Below are positions 1,826 to 55,333 of a stretch of 64,000 nucleotides of DNA, piece after piece; the first letter of the stretch is position 1, and every line of letters begins with the position of its first letter. The DNA is taken from positions 1-64,000 of the forward strand of contig JAAYVD010000022.1 in assembly GCA_012517355.1 (NCBI GenBank), read 5' to 3'. The translations under genes and the position numbers were made by a program. This stretch comes from Candidatus Rifleibacteriota bacterium (lineage in GTDB: Bacteria > Muiribacteriota > Ozemobacteria > Ozemobacterales > Ozemobacteraceae). The notes beneath the pieces are model-generated. The model had not been told where the DNA came from and made no database searches. It saw only the letters and a program-made list of their open reading frames with translations.

Positions 1826-2150
1826 ACCCCAAGGGCCTTTCCCGGGGCCGGGCGCAGGGCCATTCCCCCCCAATGCCATCCAGGTTCCAGGCCTGGGGCC
1901 TGTTCCCAAATGCCCGGCCACTGAGGCATCTCGCCGGCCCCCCCCGCTCATCCGGCTTCCGCATTCTTCCAAGGGTCTTCCTGTGCTGATCGGGAGGGCG
2001 ACTCCCTTCGCCAACTTCCTCCCTCTTCTCACCTTCTCCAGGCGTTTTCAGGGTTTCCGTTGCCGTCTGAAGGGCGAATGCCTGGGCGGCATGATGTGGC
2101 GTGGCAACTTCCCCTCTTTGCTGGTAAACTGGGCCAGGAGGGGTGAGCCG
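1826..2150. other. Intergenic stretch with no recognised feature
   Basis: This 325-bp stretch separates the EF-hand-like gene from the next gene. It is C-rich in its first half and gives only out-of-frame, low-quality open frames. I see no terminator, convincing promoter or RNA gene. Confidence 0.5.
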
Positions 2151-10136: not shown

Positions 10137-12080
10137 ATGCCAGCCAAGGACAAAAACAACGGTATCAACGGTTCCGACCGCGCGCCTCTCAGCCAGCGCC
10201 GGTTCAAGATGCCCGAGATCCGGGACGAAAAGGACCTCGGGGCCAAGGTCAAGATCACCATTGACGACCACGACCTCGAGGTGCCCTTCGGCACGACCAT
10301 CCTCGAAGCCGCCCGGACCTTGAGCATCAAGATTCCCACCCTGTGCCATCACGAAGACCTCTGCGTGGCCGGGGTCTGCCGCATCTGCGTGGTCGAGATC
10401 GAAGGCCAGCGCACGTTGCAGGCGGCCTGCGCCTACCCCGTCACGGGGCCGCTGAAGATCTCGACCTATTCCCCCAAGGTGCGCAAAGCGCGGCGGCACA
10501 ACCTCGACCTCATGCTGAAGCACCACTACGGCGAGTGCTACAGCTGCGTGCGCAACAACAACTGCGAACTGCAATCGCTGGCCAAGGAATACGGCGTCGA
10601 CTTTTACCGGTTCGGGCACGACGACAAGCCCCACCACGAGGTCGACCGGTCCAGCTACAGCGTGGTGCGGGACATGAACAAGTGCATCCTGTGCCGGCGT
10701 TGCGTGCGCACCTGCATCGACCTGCAGGAGGTCGGCGTGCTCGAAGCGGTCAACCGCGGGCCGCACACCGAGATCGCCACGTTCAACGACATGCCGCTCG
10801 GCGACGTGGTCTGCATCAACTGTGGCCAGTGCATCAACCGGTGTCCGGTGGGCGCCCTGCGGGCGAAGGACCCGTCGGACGAGATCTGGGCCGCGATCGA
10901 CGACCCGAAGAAACATGTCATCATCCAGACGGCCCCCAGTCCGCGAGCCGCCATCGGCGAGTGCTTCGGTCTGCCGCCCGGCACCTCGGTGACGCGGCAG
11001 CTGAACACGGCCCTGCGCCGGGCCGGCTTCGACAAGGTGTTCGACACGAACTTCACGGCCGACCTGACGATCATGGAAGAAGCGACGGAGCTGCTGATCC
11101 GGCTGAAAAAGGCCCTGGTCGACAAGGACAAGACGGTGAAGCTGCCGCAGTTCACCTCGTGTTCTCCCGGCTGGGTCAAGTTCTGCGAGCACTTCTACCC
11201 CGAGTTCACCGACTATCTGTCGAGTTGCAAGAGCCCGCAGCAGATGTTCGGAGCCCTGCTCAAGACCTGGTATGCGGAGAAGGCCAAGATCGATCCGAAG
11301 GACATCGTGACGGTGGCGCTGATGCCGTGCAGTGCGAAGAAGTACGAGTGCAACCGGCCCGAGATGACCTCGAGCGGTTTCAAGGATGTCGATTACGGCC
11401 TCACCAGCCGCGAACTGGCGCAAATGATCATGGAGACCGGCCTCGACCTGCCCAACCTGCCGGCGTCGGACTTCGACGACCCGGTCGGGGAGGCATCGGG
11501 CGCCGGGCTGATCTTCGGTGCCACCGGTGGCGTCATGGAGGCGGCCTTGCGCACCGCCGTCGAGGTGGTGACCGGGATCAAGACCGAGGACATCTTCAAG
11601 AATCTCGACATCACCCCGGTGCGTGGGTTCGAGGGAGTGCGGTATTACGAGATCCCGATTCCCAAGACGGCGGCGGTGCCTGAACTGCTGCAGAAGTCGC
11701 TGGGCGTGAAGACCTTCGACTTTTTGAAGGGGGCCACGCTGAAGGTGGCGGTGGCCCACGGCACGGCGAACGCCCGCAAGGTGATGGAGAACATCAAGGC
11801 GGGAGGCAAGTTCGCCGAGGCGCATTTCGTCGAGTTCATGGCCTGTCCCGGCGGCTGCCTGGGCGGCGGCGGCCAGCCCATTCCCACCTCGCCCGAGATC
11901 CGCGAGGCGCGGGCCAAGGCGATCTATGCCGAGGATGCGGGGCTGGAGTTGCGCAAGTCGCATGAGAACAAGCACGTGGTCGACTTGTACAAGGAGTTCC
12001 TGAAAGACGGGCCATGCGGTCACCAATCGCATCACCTGCTGCACACCCACTACCTGAAGCGGGGCAAGCGCATCGTGTAG
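10137..12080 (+). CDS. hydA: [FeFe] hydrogenase catalytic subunit
   Basis: The 647-residue protein has an N-terminal [2Fe-2S] ferredoxin domain (about 35-110), the His-Cys cluster segment (HHYGECYSCVRNNNCELQ), two [4Fe-4S] motifs (CILCRRCVRTC and CINCGQCINRCP) and the H-cluster domain. The H-cluster motifs are L1 TSC342-S343-PGW, L2 MPC398SAKKYE and L3 FMAC570PGGC574LGGGGQP. In well-studied enzymes the residue before Pro-Gly-Trp is a cysteine that ligates the [4Fe-4S] subcluster. Here it is serine. The end carries the small-subunit-like SHENKHVVDLY and HQLLHTHY segments. With hydB and hydC it forms a soluble NAD(P)H-linked, possibly electron-bifurcating hydrogenase. The maturases HydEFG are not in the window. 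Confidence 0.92.
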   Translation: MPAKDKNNGINGSDRAPLSQRRFKMPEIRDEKDLGAKVKITIDDHDLEVPFGTTILEAARTLSIKIPTLCHHEDLCVAGVCRICVVEIEGQRTLQAACAYPVTGPLKISTYSPKVRKARRHNLDLMLKHHYGECYSCVRNNNCELQSLAKEYGVDFYRFGHDDKPHHEVDRSSYSVVRDMNKCILCRRCVRTCIDLQEVGVLEAVNRGPHTEIATFNDMPLGDVVCINCGQCINRCPVGALRAKDPSDEIWAAIDDPKKHVIIQTAPSPRAAIGECFGLPPGTSVTRQLNTALRRAGFDKVFDTNFTADLTIMEEATELLIRLKKALVDKDKTVKLPQFTSCSPGWVKFCEHFYPEFTDYLSSCKSPQQMFGALLKTWYAEKAKIDPKDIVTVALMPCSAKKYECNRPEMTSSGFKDVDYGLTSRELAQMIMETGLDLPNLPASDFDDPVGEASGAGLIFGATGGVMEAALRTAVEVVTGIKTEDIFKNLDITPVRGFEGVRYYEIPIPKTAAVPELLQKSLGVKTFDFLKGATLKVAVAHGTANARKVMENIKAGGKFAEAHFVEFMACPGGCLGGGGQPIPTSPEIREARAKAIYAEDAGLELRKSHENKHVVDLYKEFLKDGPCGHQSHHLLHTHYLKRGKRIV

Positions 12081-12112
12081 GCGCGCCACCGGCAGGATCG
12101 ACCTGGTTTTCG

Positions 12113-12139
12113 AAGGGGCCCGTTCGCGGGCCCCTTTTT
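12113..12139 (+). terminator. Rho-independent terminator of the hydrogenase operon
   Basis: A perfect 10-bp stem (12113-12122 with 12127-12136), closed by a TTCG tetraloop, runs into TTTTT ending at 12139. It lies 33 bases after the hydA stop. Confidence 0.9.
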
Positions 12140-12186: not shown

Positions 12187-12853
12187 AAGGCATGGGGAAG
12201 AAGGAGGAGGGGAAGAAAGGAATTGGGAAAGCCAGGAAACATGGAAGGAGAAGCGGAGGAAGAAACAGACCAAGGCGAAGAAGGAGAAAGAGCATCAGGA
12301 GGAGGAGAAGAAAGAGGGGGGAAGGAGGCGGAGAAGGAGAAGGGGTAGACGGAGGAGGGCGCGAAAAAGGAGGAGAAGAAGAAGGAGAAGAAGGAGAAGG
12401 GGAAGCAGGAGAAGAAGAAGGAAAAGGGGAAGTAGGAGAAGAAGAAAGAGAAGAAGAAAGAGCAGGAGAAGGAGGAGAAAAAGAAGGAGAAGAAAAAGAA
12501 GGAGAAGAAGAAAGAGAAGGAGAAGGAGGAGGAGAAGGAGGGAAGAAAGAGAGAAGAAAGCGAAAGAGAAGGAAAACAGGGCGAGGCAAAGGGAAAAGAA
12601 AAGAGGAACGGAAGGAAAGGGGAAATGGGGAAGGTGGGGAAGGGGCGAGCGGGGAGGGGAGTTCGAGGGGGGAAGAGAGGAACGGCGGAGAGTGAGCAAG
12701 AGTGGGGGTGGGGGTTTGTGGCCGGGAGAGGCGGAGACGGTTGTGAAGGCGAGATGGAAGGGAGGATTGAAGGGGCGGGAGGAGCGGGGAGGGGAGTTTG
12801 GGGGGGAAGAGAGGACCGGCAGCGAGTGAGGAAGAGTGGGGGTGGGGGGGCTT
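12187..12853. repeat. ~660-bp homopurine/homopyrimidine low-complexity tract
   Basis: The plus strand is almost entirely A and G: irregular gaa/gag/gga runs with only scattered pyrimidines between about 12360 and 12660, then G-rich with runs of five or more G to 12853. Frames through it encode only Glu/Gly/Lys/Arg on one strand or Ser/Leu/Phe/Pro on the other, with no ribosome site, so I regard it as noncoding. It sits between the hydrogenase terminator and the glcD start. Such tracts can adopt triplex or G-quadruplex structure. Confidence 0.85.
12651..12852. repeat. Pair of ~66-bp direct repeats at the 3' end of the purine tract
   Basis: The segment at 12651-12716 (starting ggggaggggagtt) recurs at 12786-12852 with few changes, an offset of 135 bases. 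Both copies end in agtgggggtggggg, a G-run cluster able to contribute to a quadruplex. The second copy ends about 48 bases before the glcD ATG. Confidence 0.7.
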
Positions 12854-12899
12854 TCCCTGTCGGGGGTTCCGGGATAGAATGGCCCGACGAGGGGTGCCT

Positions 12900-14276
12900 A
12901 TGACCATTCCTGAACGGGTGTTGCGCCAGTTTGCCGACGAAGTCGGCCCCGAGCTTTTCTCGGCCGATCCCGTGAGCCTGGTGATGCATTCCTACGATGC
13001 CACCAATGAGTTCGTCGTCCCGGCCGGGATCGTGCGGCCGCGTGCCGCCCCGGAGGTCGCCCGGATCCTGGCGGCGGCCAATCGGCTGGGAGTGCCGCTC
13101 GTCCCCCGGGGCGCGGGAACGGGGTTTTCCGGGGGCGCCTTGCCGGAGCGGGGAGGCGTGGTCCTGGACCTGTTGGGGTTGAACCGCGTTCTCGATCTCG
13201 ACGAGGCGGCCATGACCGTCACGGTGGAGCCGGGAGTCGTCACCCTGCACCTGCAGGACCTGGTGGGGAAGAAGGGGTTGTTCTACCCTCCCGACCCGGC
13301 CTCCCTCAAGGTTTGTACGATCGGTGGAAATGTGGCAGAGAATGCCGGCGGGCCACACTGCGTCAAATACGGGGTGACACGGGACTACGTGATGGTGGTC
13401 GATGGTTTCACCGCCGACGGACGGCCGTTGCGGGCAGGCAAGGCCACTTTGAAGAACCGTGCCGGCTACGACCTCAAGGATCTGCTGATCGGCAGCGAGG
13501 GGACCCTGGCGGTGTTCACCTCGTTCGTTCTCCGGCTGATTCCACGGCCCGAGGCGACCGTGCTGTTCGTCGCGTTCTTCCCCGATTTCAACGCGGCGAC
13601 GTCCATGGTGAACACCCTGTTCCGGGCGGGAATCACCCCTTCCAGCATGGAGTTCATGGACGGGTCGGCCATCCGGGCGGTCGAACGGCACGCGAAGTTC
13701 GGATTGCCTCTGCAATACCAGGCGCTGCTGCTGATCGAGGTCGATGGTCGGGCCGACGAGATGGACAGGGTGCGCCGGAGGACGGAGGAGATCCTTTCGG
13801 CAGGGGCCGCCGAGGTGCGGGTGGCCGTTTCCGCTGAGGAGCAGGCAGCCCTGTGGGAGATCAGGCGCAAGGCCAGCCCGGCGATGCGTGCCTTCGGCAA
13901 CAAGAAGGCGAACGAGGACATCGTGGTGCCCCGGCAGCACATCCCTGCCACTATCCGCGGTTTGCGGGAGATCGCCGACCGCCATCGCCTGAACCTGATC
14001 GCCTTCGGCCACATCGGGGACGGGAACATCCACGTCAACATCATGTATGACGGCCAGGATCCGGATGAAACCGGTCGGGTTGAGGTGGCCATCCGCGAAG
14101 TGTTCGACCTGGTCAACCGGTACGAAGGGGCGGTGTCCGGGGAGCACGGGATCGGACTGTCGAAGAAACCCTACCTGCCCGCCAACCTCGACCCGGTTTG
14201 TTACGACCTGATGCGGTCGATCAAGCGGGTATTCGACCCCAACAACATTCTCAATCCGTACAAGATGTTTTACTGA
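12900..14276 (+). CDS. glcD: GlcD-like FAD-dependent glycolate/D-lactate dehydrogenase
   Basis: The 458-residue length and motifs fit the GlcD/vanillyl-alcohol-oxidase FAD family. PRGAGTGFSGGALP and IGGNVAENAGGPHCVKYGV bind the FAD pyrophosphate. FGHIGDGNIHVN and SGEHGIGLSKKPYL are the conserved C-terminal catalytic segments. It oxidises a 2-hydroxyacid such as glycolate or D-lactate, passing electrons to an Fe-S partner. That partner is probably the next plus-strand gene, 334 bp downstream. The ATG at 12900 is preceded by GAGGGG. The substrate cannot be decided from the sequence. Confidence 0.85.
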   Translation: MTIPERVLRQFADEVGPELFSADPVSLVMHSYDATNEFVVPAGIVRPRAAPEVARILAAANRLGVPLVPRGAGTGFSGGALPERGGVVLDLLGLNRVLDLDEAAMTVTVEPGVVTLHLQDLVGKKGLFYPPDPASLKVCTIGGNVAENAGGPHCVKYGVTRDYVMVVDGFTADGRPLRAGKATLKNRAGYDLKDLLIGSEGTLAVFTSFVLRLIPRPEATVLFVAFFPDFNAATSMVNTLFRAGITPSSMEFMDGSAIRAVERHAKFGLPLQYQALLLIEVDGRADEMDRVRRRTEEILSAGAAEVRVAVSAEEQAALWEIRRKASPAMRAFGNKKANEDIVVPRQHIPATIRGLREIADRHRLNLIAFGHIGDGNIHVNIMYDGQDPDETGRVEVAIREVFDLVNRYEGAVSGEHGIGLSKKPYLPANLDPVCYDLMRSIKRVFDPNNILNPYKMFY

Positions 14277-14610
14277 TGGGTCCTGACTGGAAAAAGGCGA
14301 GACTTCACCATTCCGAAAGAAACCTCGAGGGCGGCAGGAGAAAAGGAAGAAATGGGGGGAAGGGTGAAGGGAGTCGCCAGCACGATCTGCGCAATCAGCA
14401 TCGATGGGTGGATGAAAAACGTGGATTGATGCCTCAGTCGAAATGCTGGGGTGTCAACAAGGCCAAGGACGGCCAGACCGCGGATGGCCGCGGATGGACG
14501 CTGATCGGGCGGATCGATGGCCGGGTGAACGTCTCCTGAAAAGGGACGTTGGCCCTGCAGAAGTCATCAGGGGGAGGAATGGCGAGTCCGGACTGGGGAG
14601 TGGGGGGGGC
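14277..14610. other. Intergenic region holding a dispersed repeat copy
   Basis: This 334-bp gap contains the copy of the 137-bp repeat at 14319-14455. It then has a cgcggatggccgcggatggac stretch (14479-14499) with short direct repeats, and ends in the ribosome site of the iron-sulfur gene. No terminator is visible after glcD, so the two genes may still be cotranscribed. Confidence 0.5.
14319..14455. repeat. Dispersed noncoding repeat, copy A
   Basis: From agaaacctcgagg to the gtgtc at 14455 this matches 42902-43038 closely, including the identical core gggagtcgccagcacgatc and gcaatcagcatcgatgggtg. The two copies are 28.6 kb apart, in unrelated intergenic regions and the same orientation. Confidence 0.8.
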
Positions 14611-16311
14611 ATGAAACCGAAGCCGGTTGAGGTCCTCTGGCAGTTGCTGCGCGACCAGTTGGCGGCCTGCGTGAAATGCGGGGCCTGCCTGGCATTCTGT
14701 CCGCTGTATGGCCAGGAAAGACGGGAAGGGGCCTCCATGCGGGGAAAGATCGCCTTGTTGCAGGCATGGCTGGTTTCGCGCGGCGCCGAACCGGCGGCCG
14801 GGGGATCGCGCGGGGCAGGGGACCACCCTCGAGCGGTGCGCGAAACCGGGGTTTCGCGCGGCGTCGACCCGGCGGACGGCCGGCCGCGTGAAGTAGGGGA
14901 CCACCTTCGAGTGGTGCGCGAAACGGGGGTTTCTCGCGGCGTCGACCCGGCGGCGGGCCGGGCGCGTGGAGCAGGGGACGACCTTCGAGTGATACGCGAA
15001 ACCCAGGGTCCGCCCCGCCCTCCGTGGTGGCAACGGGGTCTGGCTGACATCCTGCCGGTCGGCCCGTTTTTCGATGGGGAAACTGGCGTGTCGCGCCGAT
15101 CTCTGGAGGCGCCGGGTGGACTGTCGGCCATCCGGTCGGGCGGGCGCCTGGCTGTCCCTCCCGGCGATCTGCGCGAGGCCCTCTCGTTCTGCACCGGGTG
15201 CCAGAGCTGCCGGGCCACTTGCCCGAACGGGGTGGACACGTGCCTGGTGACGCTGCTCGGCCGGCTGCTCCTTCCCAAGAGCCCTCTCCAGGCCTGGAAG
15301 GAATGGGGGTGCTCCCTCCTCGCCCGGTGGCCCTGGGGGCGGCGGTTTCTCGGGCGGATGCTGTTCGGGCCAGCTGGTCCTGGTGGCCGGGGGGGCGGAG
15401 ACGGCAGCCTCGGCGCCGGTCGGCGGGAACCCGAGGCCGGCCAGGGGTTGGCGGGCGGGAGGAGCGGCGCCCCGGAAGCCAATCCAGGGAAGCCTGGTGG
15501 GGCGTCCGAGGTCGGCATGGAGGGGGCTTCGGAAGCCAGTCCGGTGGGCGGTTCCCGGGCCAAGGGGCCGGGTCTGGCTGGGCCCGTGGTCCTGGTGCCG
15601 GGCTTCCGCCTGGCCCGGTTCCCGCATCTGGTGGAAGCCGCGGCCAACCTGATGGCCGCTTGCGGCGGTGGCGAACGGCCCACCGTGGAGACGGCGTGGT
15701 GCGGGGAGTTGGCGCTCGAGATTCCCGATCTCGAAGGGTATTCCCGGCAGCTGGGGGCCTGGCTGGAAACCATTGGCCGCCATGCCCCCGGCCGGATCGT
15801 CGTGGCGTGCCCGCACTGTCTGGAAGCGTTGGGTCGGGCTCGCGACCTGTGCGAGGCCTCTTCCGGCGAAGCCCGGTTGCTCGACCGGGTGACCGATCTC
15901 TACTCCTGGTTGCGCGAGGCAGGGTTCCGCCCGGTATCACAGGGCGACGCGCCCGCCATCCTGTTGGACGTCTGTGCCAACCGCAAAGACAAAGCCATGA
16001 GCCGCGCGGCCCGGGAGCTGTTGGGCCGGTGCCGGCCGAGCGGGGTGGAGGAGCCCGCCGTGACGGGTGGGGGGTGCACCTGCCGGGGCGGCTTCGGGGG
16101 GAGGTTTCCCTCGGTGGCCCGGACTCTACGCCGGCGGGTGGACGGCGGGGGAAGGGAACGGGGCAGCGAAGAGTTGGTGACGGTGTGCGCCAGTTGCCTG
16201 CGCGCCTGGAAGGGGACGCGGGGTGGCCGGGTGGTGCACCTGATCGAGGTGCTGGGCGGTGGGGCGGGGGGCCGTTCGGGGCCCCGCCCCTTGAATGGGG
16301 GAGCGGTCTGA
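14611..16311 (+). CDS. GlcF-like iron-sulfur protein with repeat expansions
   Basis: The 566-residue protein begins with a ferredoxin motif C20-x2-C23-x2-C26-x3-C30-P (CVKCGACLAFCP) and has a second motif, CTGCQSCRATCP, at about 194-206, as in the glycolate oxidase iron-sulfur subunit GlcF. Between them sit three tandem 26-residue copies (residues 55-132, units containing RETGVSRGVDPA) followed by another repeat-derived stretch to about 170. A second low-complexity Gly/Ala/Ser insert lies at about 250-325. The C-terminal cysteines (CPHCLEALG, DVCANRKDK, GGGCTCRGG, CASCLRAWKG) echo the CCG domain but lack the canonical CCG-type spacing. It is likely the electron-accepting partner of the upstream GlcD-like protein. 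Confidence 0.72.
   Translation: MKPKPVEVLWQLLRDQLAACVKCGACLAFCPLYGQERREGASMRGKIALLQAWLVSRGAEPAAGGSRGAGDHPRAVRETGVSRGVDPADGRPREVGDHLRVVRETGVSRGVDPAAGRARGAGDDLRVIRETQGPPRPPWWQRGLADILPVGPFFDGETGVSRRSLEAPGGLSAIRSGGRLAVPPGDLREALSFCTGCQSCRATCPNGVDTCLVTLLGRLLLPKSPLQAWKEWGCSLLARWPWGRRFLGRMLFGPAGPGGRGGGDGSLGAGRREPEAGQGLAGGRSGAPEANPGKPGGASEVGMEGASEASPVGGSRAKGPGLAGPVVLVPGFRLARFPHLVEAAANLMAACGGGERPTVETAWCGELALEIPDLEGYSRQLGAWLETIGRHAPGRIVVACPHCLEALGRARDLCEASSGEARLLDRVTDLYSWLREAGFRPVSQGDAPAILLDVCANRKDKAMSRAARELLGRCRPSGVEEPAVTGGGCTCRGGFGGRFPSVARTLRRRVDGGGRERGSEELVTVCASCLRAWKGTRGGRVVHLIEVLGGGAGGRSGPRPLNGGAV
14773..15006 (+). repeat. 78-bp tandem triplication inside a coding region
   Basis: Three copies begin at 14773, 14851 and 14929, each exactly 78 bp (26 codons), so the reading frame is kept. 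Each contains the palindromic core gcgaaaccggggtttcgcgc or a close variant and a gaccaccttcgag-type element. It lies within the GlcF-like gene between its two ferredoxin motifs. Confidence 0.85.
15007..15090 (+). repeat. In-gene copy of the interspersed ~75-bp repeat
   Basis: The sequence cgccctccgtggtggcaacggg... through ctgccggtcggccc resembles the repeat copies at 4765, 43563 and 48603. It follows the 78-bp triplication directly and stays in frame inside the GlcF-like gene. Confidence 0.5.
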
Positions 16312-42831: not shown

Positions 42832-42901
42832 GGCAGCCATCCTCTCATCGATCCGAAGCTTTTCTGAAGAACGATGATTCGCGAGACTTCCGCATATCGA
42901 C

Positions 42902-43038
42902 AGAAACCTCGAGGACGGCAGGGGAAGGGGAGAAAAGGGGGAAATGGCGAAGGGAGTCGCCAGCACGATCCGCGCAATCAGCATCGATGGGTGGATGAAG
43001 AACGTACATTGATGCGTCAGTCGCCATGCTGGAGTGTC
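42902..43038. repeat. Dispersed noncoding repeat, copy B
   Basis: This matches copy A (14319-14455) from agaaacctcgagg onward. In this copy the last part is itself duplicated: a 59-bp unit starting tcgatgggtggatg (42984) is followed by a diverged unit starting tcgatgggttgatg (43043), both ending in ggagtgtc. It sits in the 540-bp gap after the FecR-like gene. Confidence 0.8.
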
Positions 43039-43375
43039 GAATCGATGGGTTGATGCGGAAAGGGGAATGGATGCGTCCGTCGAGATGCCGGAGTGTCTGA
43101 TTCCCGCAGGCATTGCCCCCATCCACACGTCAGACCGAAGCCTTTCGGAAAACCGTTCCAGAAATTCTGGAGAGAATTGCTGCCTTCGAGGGGACCGCCC
43201 TCCCCCTCTCACCCGTGACCAGGGACGAGCCCTGAGCCTGCTCGCCTCGGGCTTTCGCGTTTCTCGCCTGCCATGGAAAGAAGGCGGGGGTCGTTTTTCC
43301 GGTGAACCGGGTGCCCGGTCTTGCCGATACCAGGAGGAAAGGCCCACCGCTTTTTCGCAGCGAAAGGATGCCGCC
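43039..43375. other. Intergenic region after dispersed repeat
   Basis: This stretch holds the second diverged repeat unit (43043-43097), a cgaagcctttcggaaaaccg segment that partly mirrors 42854-42873, and an isolated ribosome-site-like caggaggaaagg (43331-43342). No gene of normal size is supported. Confidence 0.4.
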
Positions 43376-51653: not shown

Positions 51654-54299
51654 ATGGGGGAAAAAAGAAAGGTCCTGGTCTTCTCGGAAAAGCCGTCGGT
51701 CGGTCGGGACATCGCCGCCGTGCTGGGGGCCACCCGCAAACGCCAGGGGTACATCGAGGGCGACGACTACCTGGTGACCTGGGGCATCGGTCACCTCGTC
51801 ACCCTCGGCCAGCCCGAAGAACAGGACCCATCCTGGAAACGCTGGGACCTCGCCCGCCTGCCCATGCTGCCCCGCGACTGGAAGCTGAGCGTGTTGCCCA
51901 ACACGAAGGACCAGTTCGAGGTGGTGCGGGAACTGATGCACCGCCCCGACGTCGGTGAGGTGGTCAACGCTGCCGACGCCGGCCGCGAAGGGGAGCTGAT
52001 CTTCCGGCTCGTCTACCGGCAGGCCGGATGCGCCAAGCCGTTCCGCCGTCTCTGGATCTCGAGCATGACCGACGAGGCGATCCGCGACGGGTTCGCCGCC
52101 CTCCGCCCCGGCGCGGAACTCGACCCGCTCGCCCGGGCGGCCGAGTGCCGCCAGCGCGCCGACTGGCTGGTCGGCCTGAACCTGACCCGCTGCTACACGA
52201 AGAAATACGGCGACATGCTGACCATCGGACGGGTCCAGACCCCGACCCTGGCCATGGTGGTCAAACGCCACCACGAGATCACCGCGTTCAAGCCTCGCGA
52301 CTTCTGGGAAGTGCGGGTCTCCTACGGCGATTTCGCCGCCCTGTGGTTCGACCCGAAGGAGAAGGAGACCCCGACCCGCCTGTGGGAAAAGGCCGCCGCC
52401 GAGGCCATGGCCGCCCGGCTGGGCGCGGCCGAGGCCGAGGTCGGGAAGGTCACCTCGGCGCGCAAGAAGCAGCCGCCCCCGTTCCTCTACGACCTGACCA
52501 CCCTGCAACGCGAGGCCAACAGCCGGTTCGGCTACACCGCCGCCCAGACCCTGGCCGCCGCCCAGGCCTTGTACGAACGGCGGAAAGTGATCACCTATCC
52601 GCGCACGGACAGCCGGCACCTGTCGGAAGACCTGCACGCCACCGTCGGACGCCGGCTGTCCGCCCTGCCCCCGGAATACCGGGCGTTCGTGGAACCCCTG
52701 CTGAAGAAGGCGGTTCCCAAGCCCCGGCGGGTGTTCGACAATGCCAAGGTCAGCGACCACCATGCGATCATCCCGACGGAACAACGGCCTTCCGACCAGA
52801 ATGCCTGGAAGCCCGAGGAGCGGCACATCTACGACCTGGTGGCGCGCCGCTTCCTGGCCGCCTTCTTCCCCGACCACGAGTACCTGTCGACGACCGTGGT
52901 CATGAAGGCCGACGGGGAATCGCTCAAGGCGGCCGGCCGCGTGGTCCTGGTGCCGGGCTGGCGCACCTTGTACGATCGCAAGGATGATGGTGGAACCGGC
53001 GCGGCGGGGGACGAGGAGGGCGAGGGCGAAGACCAGGCCCTGCCCCCTCTCAAGCAGGGCGACCGCCGGCCGCCCGCCGGCGCCGAGCTGCTGACCAGGC
53101 AGACCAAGCCGCCCCCGCCCTACACCGACGCCAGCCTGCTGCAGGCGATGGAGACGGCCGGCAAGCTGGTCGAGAACGACGAACTGCGCCTGGCCATGAA
53201 GGACAGCGGGCTGGGCACTCCCGCCACCCGTGCCGAGATCATCGAGAAGCTGATCCGGGTCGGCTACCTGCAGCGTGAGAAGAAGAAGATCCAGCCCACC
53301 CCCAAGGGCATCCAGCTGATCGCCCTCGCCGACGGGCAGCTGGCCAGCCCCGAACTGACCGGGGCCTGGGAAAAGCGCCTCACCGACATCGCCAAGGCCC
53401 GGGCCGGGGACGGCCCGTTCATGGCCGACATCGAGACGTTCGTCCGCGACCTGGTGAACAAGGTGCGCGCCGAACGGTCGGTGGTGCGGTTCACCCCGCC
53501 GCCGCCCGCCGGGGGAACCCGCCCGGGGCCCACGGCCGGTCCCCGGGGCGCGGCCGGCCCCGCACCGGCAACGGGATCACCCGCCGTCGGGCGTGGGCCG
53601 GCCGACCGTCCGGCCCCGCCCGGAACCCGGAAGGACCAGCCGCCAGCGCGCGCCGGGAATGGGCCGTCGCCCCGCCCGCCCGCTGGTGCCTCCCCTCCGC
53701 CCGGAACCAGTCCCCGCCGCGGTCCGACCGACGGTTCGCCCCACCCGGGCGGGGCGGCCGCCCGGGGGCCAGGCCCAGGGTCCGGTGCCGCTCCCCGGCC
53801 AGGTCCGGCCGCCGCCTCTGCGGCCGCCCCTGCCCGGCCGCCCTCGGCCCCGACCGCCCCCGGCCACCCGAACGGTGTTTCCCCCACCGGCCGCCCCACG
53901 TTCGGCCCCTGCCCGGCCTGCCACCAGGGCAACATCATCGAGGGCAGCCGCGGCTTCGGGTGCGACCGGTTCCGCGAAGGGTGCACCTACGTGGTCTGGA
54001 AGGAATTCATGGGCAAGAAGCTGTCTGACAGCAATATCAAGACGCTGATCGCCGGCAAGCCGACGCGGGTGATGAAAGGGTTCACCGCCGAAGACGGCCG
54101 GGCCGTTTCGGGCAAGATCCGCATGCGGCCCGACGGCAAGGGCATCGAGCTGGTGGAGTGGGGGCCTGACAGCGAGGCCGGGTCAGAACCGAAGAACCCG
54201 AAGAATCCGAAGAATCCGAAGAACCCGAAGAACCCGAAGAACCCGAAGAACCCGAAGAAAGGGGCCGGTCCTGGTTCAGGGGGCGAACAGCCAGCCTGA
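51654..54299 (+). CDS. topB: Type IA DNA topoisomerase III
   Basis: The 881-residue protein is a TopB-type enzyme: an N-terminal TOPRIM domain (FSEKPSVGRDIAAVL and NAADAGREGELIFRLVY), then YTKKYGDMLTIGRVQTPTL. The catalytic tyrosine is in the VITYPRTDSRHLS segment. LGTPATRAEIIEKLI follows. After about 610 comes a Pro/Gly/Ala/Arg-rich linker of about 140 residues, then a C-terminal zinc-finger-like domain (GPCPACHQGNIIEG...GCDRFREGC) and a tail of repeated N-P-K triplets. It relaxes or decatenates DNA through a 5'-phosphotyrosine. The start at 51654 follows AGGGGTC. The 3' end overlaps the convergent gene by 24 bp. Confidence 0.93.
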   Translation: MGEKRKVLVFSEKPSVGRDIAAVLGATRKRQGYIEGDDYLVTWGIGHLVTLGQPEEQDPSWKRWDLARLPMLPRDWKLSVLPNTKDQFEVVRELMHRPDVGEVVNAADAGREGELIFRLVYRQAGCAKPFRRLWISSMTDEAIRDGFAALRPGAELDPLARAAECRQRADWLVGLNLTRCYTKKYGDMLTIGRVQTPTLAMVVKRHHEITAFKPRDFWEVRVSYGDFAALWFDPKEKETPTRLWEKAAAEAMAARLGAAEAEVGKVTSARKKQPPPFLYDLTTLQREANSRFGYTAAQTLAAAQALYERRKVITYPRTDSRHLSEDLHATVGRRLSALPPEYRAFVEPLLKKAVPKPRRVFDNAKVSDHHAIIPTEQRPSDQNAWKPEERHIYDLVARRFLAAFFPDHEYLSTTVVMKADGESLKAAGRVVLVPGWRTLYDRKDDGGTGAAGDEEGEGEDQALPPLKQGDRRPPAGAELLTRQTKPPPPYTDASLLQAMETAGKLVENDELRLAMKDSGLGTPATRAEIIEKLIRVGYLQREKKKIQPTPKGIQLIALADGQLASPELTGAWEKRLTDIAKARAGDGPFMADIETFVRDLVNKVRAERSVVRFTPPPPAGGTRPGPTAGPRGAAGPAPATGSPAVGRGPADRPAPPGTRKDQPPARAGNGPSPRPPAGASPPPGTSPRRGPTDGSPHPGGAAARGPGPGSGAAPRPGPAAASAAAPARPPSAPTAPGHPNGVSPTGRPTFGPCPACHQGNIIEGSRGFGCDRFREGCTYVVWKEFMGKKLSDSNIKTLIAGKPTRVMKGFTAEDGRAVSGKIRMRPDGKGIELVEWGPDSEAGSEPKNPKNPKNPKNPKNPKNPKNPKKGAGPGSGGEQPA
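54189..54260 (+). repeat. Eight tandem 9-bp units encoding (N-P-K)n
   Basis: The unit ccgaagaac (two copies have ccgaagaat) is repeated eight times, adding a basic, flexible Asn-Pro-Lys tail to topoisomerase III. Confidence 0.9.
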
Positions 54300-55084: not shown

Positions 55085-55333
55085 CCCCCCCTCCCAAGGC
55101 CAAAACCACCCCGCGTTTCCGCATTGCCGGTTTGGCGTGGGTCGGGAGACGGGGGCCTTTCCCTCAGGAGCGAAAGTTCGCCGCGGTATCCCCTTGCCGA
55201 CCTGGTGTCGATCGGGAGACGGGGGCCGCCCCCCCAGGGGCAAGGGCACGCCTCGGTTCCTCGTTGCCGGTCTGGCGCGGATCGAGAGACGGGCGCTTTC
55301 CCCCCAAGGGCAAACGCACCCCTCGTTTCCCCT
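55085..55333. repeat. 70-bp tandem repeat, three full copies plus a partial one
   Basis: Full copies begin at 55124, 55194 and 55264, each exactly 70 bp. They share ttgccgg..tggcg, gatcgggagacggggg and a c-run/aagggcaa-type tail. A partial copy precedes at about 55085. The block is in the 431-bp gap before the rhomboid gene, and no spacer structure is seen. Confidence 0.85.

What the first reader, a model, noticed from the sequence alone, without database searches (positions are those of the whole stretch)
12187..12853. Long homopurine tract between the hydrogenase operon and glcD
About 660 bp is nearly pure A/G on one strand, GAA/GAG-like first and then G-run-rich, in a genome where neighbouring sequence is balanced. 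Such sequence can form intramolecular triplex or G-quadruplex structures and stall polymerases. It starts just after a terminator and ends just before a gene start, so it may insulate transcription, affect glcD, or mark a replication or repair hotspot.
Basis: seen in the sequence. Interest (0 to 1): 0.5.

Follow-up and report, generated by a model that had tools for sequence, protein, structure and literature searches.

The report
Homopurine tract within dispersed repeat family
The long stretch of only A and G letters is real, but it is one swollen copy of a short repeat that this bacterium carries at a hundred or more places between its genes, not a special control region for the neighbouring genes.

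Summary
The tract is real: 595 of 667 bases at 12187-12853 are purines, far outside the rest of the window. It is not unique. The 7.1-Mb Ozemobacteraceae genome holds 65 pure-purine runs of 28 or more bases, against 2 and 4 in its two same-genus relatives. At 12611-12658 the tract carries a conserved core that a model finds at 144 places, a lower bound. All 105 clusters examined lie outside predicted genes, in either orientation. Core identity between loci is 78%; flanks are near chance. One subfamily with this core region is a miniature transposon (MITE): about 157 bp, terminal inverted repeats, 8-bp target duplications. Two such copies lie in this window, one 22 bp after glcD. Older copies lack visible ends and often form local tandem arrays. 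I read the tract as one old, locally expanded copy. A cognate core in another genus keeps all 18 invariant positions but not the quadruplex-type G-runs. Both same-genus relatives lack the tract at this locus. Nothing supports insulation or glcD control.

The parts
12112..12137 (+). terminator-like hairpin plus T-run after the hydrogenase gene
   Evidence: fold -23 kcal/mol, z -3.4; the consensus scan listed none
12194..12850 (+). homopurine tract
   Evidence: maximal-scoring purine segment; composition
12277..12571 (+). imperfect GAA/GAG tandem region (periods 12, 15, 27 and 66)
   Evidence: TRF, the repeat finder
12611..12658 (+). conserved core of the dispersed repeat family; the exact degenerate motif GGNNAANNGGNGAANNNGGNGANNGGGNGA is at 12619-12648
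   Evidence: E 1.7e-6 genome-wide; leave-one-out score 49.9 against at most 28.9 in 1000 shuffles; the motif occurs once in the window and in 0 of 100 shuffles
12621..12714 (+). first copy of a 134/135-bp duplication
   Evidence: D3 and D4
12756..12848 (+). second copy of the duplication (holds a diverged core)
   Evidence: D3 and D4
12875..12880 (+). TAGAAT, -10-like hexamer upstream of glcD, shared with both same-genus relatives
   Evidence: read by eye; not called by the promoter scan
14299..14455 (+). MITE copy (subfamily M), 22 bp after the glcD stop codon, flanked by AAAAAGGC / AACAAGGC
42883..43038 (+). MITE copy (subfamily M)
43039..43097 (+). extra partial right end after the previous copy; TGATTCGC / TGATTCCC flank the pair
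1925..2063 (-). diverged, partial member
   Evidence: E 6.8e-8 over part of the M model; extended after iteration

Best explanation
The tract is an old copy of a dispersed intergenic repeat family of this Ozemobacteraceae genome, grown long by local duplication. Shown: it holds the family's conserved core (four GGNGA(A) units at 8-9-8 spacing), and the family sits between genes in either orientation. Shown for one subfamily (M) only: the elements are about 157 bp long with terminal inverted repeats and 8-bp target duplications, so they spread as non-autonomous transposons (MITEs). Shown at about a quarter of loci: the core and its neighbourhood are tandemly repeated, usually in units of 78-157 bp that differ from locus to locus. 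Inferred: the tract began as such an insertion between an intact terminator-like hairpin and an intact glcD promoter region, lost its ends, and lengthened by slippage or unequal recombination of purine-rich, structure-prone DNA. No host function is required; the intergenic placement follows from selection against gene disruption.
For: Core match in the tract far above shuffles, 0 of 1000, with the window copy left out of the model. 144 core matches in the genome. 0 of 105 clusters inside predicted genes, although about 82% of the same stretches is coding. Core identity 0.78 and flank identity 0.32 between loci. M subfamily: 31 copies, 22 with at least 6 of 8 target-duplication matches against about 1.7 expected with shuffled partners. 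An M model built from those copies also matches intermediate, non-M copies far beyond the core, e.g. L126 model positions 6-146, E 1.3e-18, and L139 positions 2-116, E 1.2e-10. 31 of 112 clusters hold two or more cores in tandem. 20 of 105 clusters lie within 500 bp of a contig end against 2.7 expected, as repeats that break an assembly do. The tract is absent from the orthologous spacers of both same-genus relatives.
Against: The tract itself shows no terminal inverted repeats or target duplication, and neither do nearly all non-M copies: 89 clusters tested, scores barely above shuffled pairing except in M copies. The iterated M model did not reach the tract's own core at E 1e-4, so its link to the family rests on the core alone. 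Copies were collected by purine runs and by the core, which biases any statement on core conservation. M has T at one of the 18 invariant positions (consensus), so the core may be older than the MITE and not derived from it. No autonomous element with these ends was found.
Confidence: 0.7

Rival explanations
1. The core is a host-selected DNA site (four GGNGA(A) units) bound by a chromosome-associated protein, kept at many intergenic places; the MITE subfamily merely captured it.
For: All 18 invariant positions recur in 15 of 15 repeats of a second genus, G010, while the free positions differ; flanks vary and the core stays; 0 exact matches in the viral collection.
Against: In recent tandem units the core is no better conserved than its flank (for most pairs with flank identity 0.9 or more the core is equal or lower). 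Not detected in the two same-genus genomes. Orientation is random.
Confidence: 0.15
2. Polar guide sequences for a DNA translocase (FtsK/SpoIIIE type); the core contains strings resembling the recalled KOPS and SRS motifs.
For: Resemblance only, recalled and not tested by any search.
Against: No strand bias: 58 of 102 with GC skew, 48 of 102 with gene strand, 17 of 43 neighbours in the same orientation.
Confidence: 0.03
3. One reading: the tract insulates transcription or regulates glcD through triplex or quadruplex DNA.
For: Position between a hairpin and a start codon; quadruplex-type motif in 74 of 105 cores against 167 of 20000 background 55-mers and 103 of 5000 intergenic ones.
Against: Relatives lack it at this locus with the gene order kept; the same element sits in all gene contexts; the G010 cores keep the invariant positions but not runs of three or more G at all four units.
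Confidence: 0.07
4. Remnant of a Lys/Glu-rich coding region.
For: Repeat spacings in the main family of the tract are multiples of 3 and one frame reads K/E-rich.
Against: That frame has two stop codons inside the purine part; array periods elsewhere are not biased to multiples of 3 (11 of 41); pure purine DNA has no stop codons by composition, so open frames mean little.
Confidence: 0.03

Closest known systems
Bacterial MITEs in general (review PMC10969869, passages seen) such as ERIC, Correia, RUP, Chunjie
   Same: Short, dispersed, mostly intergenic; terminal inverted repeats and target duplications in young copies; many end-less relics
   Different: Here a purine-rich core is the best-kept part of old copies and swells into tandem arrays and long homopurine tracts; the review's text has no mention of purine or quadruplex
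BrickBuilt MITE of Porphyromonas gingivalis (PMC4596501, abstract seen)
   Same: A MITE-like intergenic element holding a minisatellite; species-restricted
   Different: BrickBuilt repeats one 23-nt unit; here the tandem units are locus-specific, 78 bp and longer, and share only the core
GGGNATC quadruplex-forming repeats of Xanthomonas and Nostoc (PMC4692102, abstract seen)
   Same: G-rich quadruplex-type repeats spread over intergenic regions
   Different: Those are heptamer repeats with preferred gene contexts; here a 48-nt core in MITE-related elements without orientation bias
Intrastrand triplex motifs of bacteria (PMC4666352, abstract and one section seen)
   Same: Dispersed structure-prone repeats linked to genomic instability
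   Different: Those are defined by three triplex-forming blocks; not tested here
REP/RAYT systems
   Same: Dispersed intergenic elements without their own gene; the genome has one Y1 (RAYT-like) transposase gene
   Different: That gene is flanked by other repeats, not by this core or the M ends (repeats read by eye); M makes 8-bp target duplications

Membership tests
MITE (subfamily M copies) | terminal inverted repeats | tested here: met
   Left and right ends are near reverse complements; 67 left-end and 62 right-end matches, 0 with the pattern reversed
MITE (subfamily M copies) | target site duplication | tested here: met
   8 bp; 22 of 31 copies with at least 6 of 8 matches, about 1.7 expected
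MITE (subfamily M copies) | short and non-coding | tested here: met
   47 of 49 paired ends lie 108-155 bp apart start to start, the other two at 192 and 209
MITE (subfamily M copies) | an autonomous partner with the same ends | tested here: not met
   No end pair 300-6000 bp apart in the assembly at up to 3 mismatches; the partner may be lost or unassembled, so not decisive
MITE (the tract 12187-12853 itself) | terminal inverted repeats and target duplication | tested here: not met
   The end search gave no convincing ends for the tract or for nearly all non-M copies; the tract is filed as a member of the core family, not as a MITE
Core repeat family (defined here) | 48-nt core / 18 invariant positions | tested here: met
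Rfam RNA family | match above gathering score | tested here: not met
   0 matches in eight loci; only chance-level rows for the window stretch
KOPS/SRS polar sequences | strand bias along replichores | tested here: not met

The most novel reading that the evidence does not exclude
The four-unit core GGNNAANNGGNGAANNNGGNGANNGGGNGA is a family-wide DNA recognition site, for a transposase or a nucleoid protein, that has been kept across genera of very different GC content. Around it this species builds locus-specific tandem arrays, so that one small site generates hundreds of base pairs of new intergenic homopurine DNA.
Probability: 0.15. Interest if true: 0.6.

Novelty: new variant of a known kind. 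Interest (0 to 1): 0.4.

Why it matters
It turns a single curious tract into a genome-wide repeat family with young, mobile members and old, swollen ones, so the birth of long homopurine tracts in a bacterium can be followed step by step. It also shows that such a tract should not be read as a local regulatory element without a genome-wide check. The repeats break the assembly, so true copy number and array length need long reads.

Tried and rejected
Polar translocase guides (orientation random). Known RNA families. Mobilisation by the genome's single Y1 transposase: its neighbourhood has no core and no M element; repeats on both sides of it, read by eye, are of another kind. An autonomous parent of M (none). 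Ends and target duplications for non-M copies (not above control). A transposase gene between inverted core pairs (none that I recognised by reading). Selection on the core inside recent arrays (not seen; the older pairs are confounded because the first unit's upstream flank lies outside the array). Stable folding of an M copy as single-stranded DNA (z -0.21, no better than shuffles). A coding origin.

Dropped rows: 7 of 38 M copies left out of the alignment and the target-duplication count (6 loci named in the scripts, one of them with two copies: truncated or with damaged ends). 16 of 105 clusters left out of the end search for lack of flank. 3 of 105 left out of the GC-skew and gene-strand counts.

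Full report
Observation. The purine tract is real and extreme for this window. Gene context: upstream an NADH-dependent [FeFe] hydrogenase of group A6 (above its curated cut-off) ending at 12080, then a hairpin; downstream a GlcD-like oxidase starting at 12900 (best model TIGR00387, 429.5 bits, below the 567.9 cut-off). The nearest named relative found is Candidatus Ozemobacter sibiricus BY5, 77% identical in that protein.

Not a single site. The window lies in a draft genome of 7,114,650 bases in 184 contigs. A search for a pyrimidine followed by 28 purines gave 65 places there. Of the 21 other family genomes, the two of the same genus have 2 and 4; the others have 0 to 29, many of them with A-rich or simple repeats in the listed rows. 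Score-based segments show other long tracts, for example 830 bp in L039 and 528 bp in L036.

The shared core. Most of these tracts carry the same core. 28 copies aligned without gaps give 18 invariant columns. The sequence-only model R1 gave 144 matches at E 0.1 in the own genome, with only 150 of 6807 first-look candidates scored, so this is a lower bound. In 55 other genomes it matched only G010, of the same family but another genus, with 15 weak matches; that search used stricter filters. The tract's own match is E 1.7e-6 (the window copy is one of the 28 in the model). With the window copy left out of a model of the same alignment, the tract scores 49.9 bits against at most 28.9 in 1000 dinucleotide shuffles. 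The 30-base degenerate motif made from the invariant columns occurs once in the window, at 12619-12648, and in none of 100 shuffles. It has no exact match in the viral collection.

Where the copies lie. In 818,253 bases fetched around purine runs and cores I found 105 clusters at E below 0.01. Orientation to genes and to GC skew is random. Eight neighbouring clusters lie less than 2 kb apart; seven of these pairs are inverted, and in the seven loci printed the plus-strand core comes first.

A mobile subfamily. One subgroup has sharp ends. A BLAST search of the own genome with one copy gave 41 matches, with 40 candidates scored. Both ends were then counted: 67 left and 62 right, and 0 with the pattern reversed. 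49 right ends pair with a left end, none beyond 209 bases. Flanks of 31 copies show an 8-bp duplication (first sign). This is what defines a MITE. It is absent from the 23 other family genomes searched. Two copies with intact ends are in this window, the nearer one at 14299-14455 just after glcD.

From young to old. A profile of M alone reaches copies outside the subgroup over long stretches. Iteration to a fourth search brings in 73 core-bearing hits and 16 without a detected core; such growth can drift in purine-rich DNA, so I lean on the first round. Non-M copies show no ends above control. Between loci the core is 78% identical (median) and the right flank 32%, which is near chance. About a quarter of clusters (31 of 112) hold tandem cores. 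Of 41 spacings, 34 lie between 78 and 157 bp and 7 between 188 and 254; neighbouring units in one array can be nearly identical while units of different loci are not. The 134/135-bp duplication in the tract fits this. Clusters are enriched at contig ends, 20 of 105.

The locus in relatives. Both same-genus genomes keep hydrogenase, spacer and glcD in order, without a purine tract: the maximum over 100-bp windows in the 1.5 kb upstream of glcD is 0.62 and 0.60, against 0.99 here. A TAGAAT hexamer just upstream of glcD is shared by all three (read by eye). So the tract was added between elements that were kept.

A second genus. The 15 matches in G010 belong to a dispersed repeat there, mostly near contig ends. 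Its loci have GC 0.51, and its core keeps all 18 invariant positions while the free ones differ. Because its G-runs are shorter, the quadruplex-type pattern seen in 74 of 105 cores here is not what is conserved. 17 further stretches from seven other family genomes, chosen for purine runs, have no core; three that I read from the same genus (L223, L226, L227) look like Lys/Glu-rich coding sequence.

Literature. Papers on Ozemobacter or Riflebacteria (43 found, 20 titles listed and seen), polypurine repeats, MITEs, quadruplex plus MITE, homopurine plus MITE and purine-rich intergenic repeats showed no description of this family in the listings. That is a statement about these searches only.

Verdict. 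The tract is an old, swollen member of a dispersed repeat family whose young members are MITEs. How the old copies lost their ends and how the arrays grow is inference.

Noticed in passing
L217:1171-1962 (G000:C109): The genome's single Y1 transposase gene is RAYT-like (64 bits, below the 80-bit cut-off of NF047646). By eye, copies of a different repeat (GGGACATGATACCGAA-like) flank it on both sides in inverted orientation, and similar strings occur near other loci: probably this genome's own REP family.
   Followed up: partly
L117, L041, L138, L038, L056, L051, L175: Where two oppositely oriented cores lie less than 2 kb apart, the plus-strand core comes first in these seven loci, so the pairs face each other.
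   Followed up: partly
L102-L116 (G010): A same-family genome of another genus has a contig-breaking dispersed repeat with a cognate core in lower-GC form.
   Followed up: partly
window 14772-15003: 78-bp tandem repeat, three copies, shortly after glcD (TRF).
   Followed up: no
window 55101-55330 and 54185-54259: Further tandem arrays with 70-bp and 9-bp periods (TRF).
   Followed up: no
window 43039-43097: A second partial right end abuts the M copy at 42883, and the target duplication flanks the pair: a tandem duplication of a MITE end or an end-to-end insertion.
   Followed up: partly
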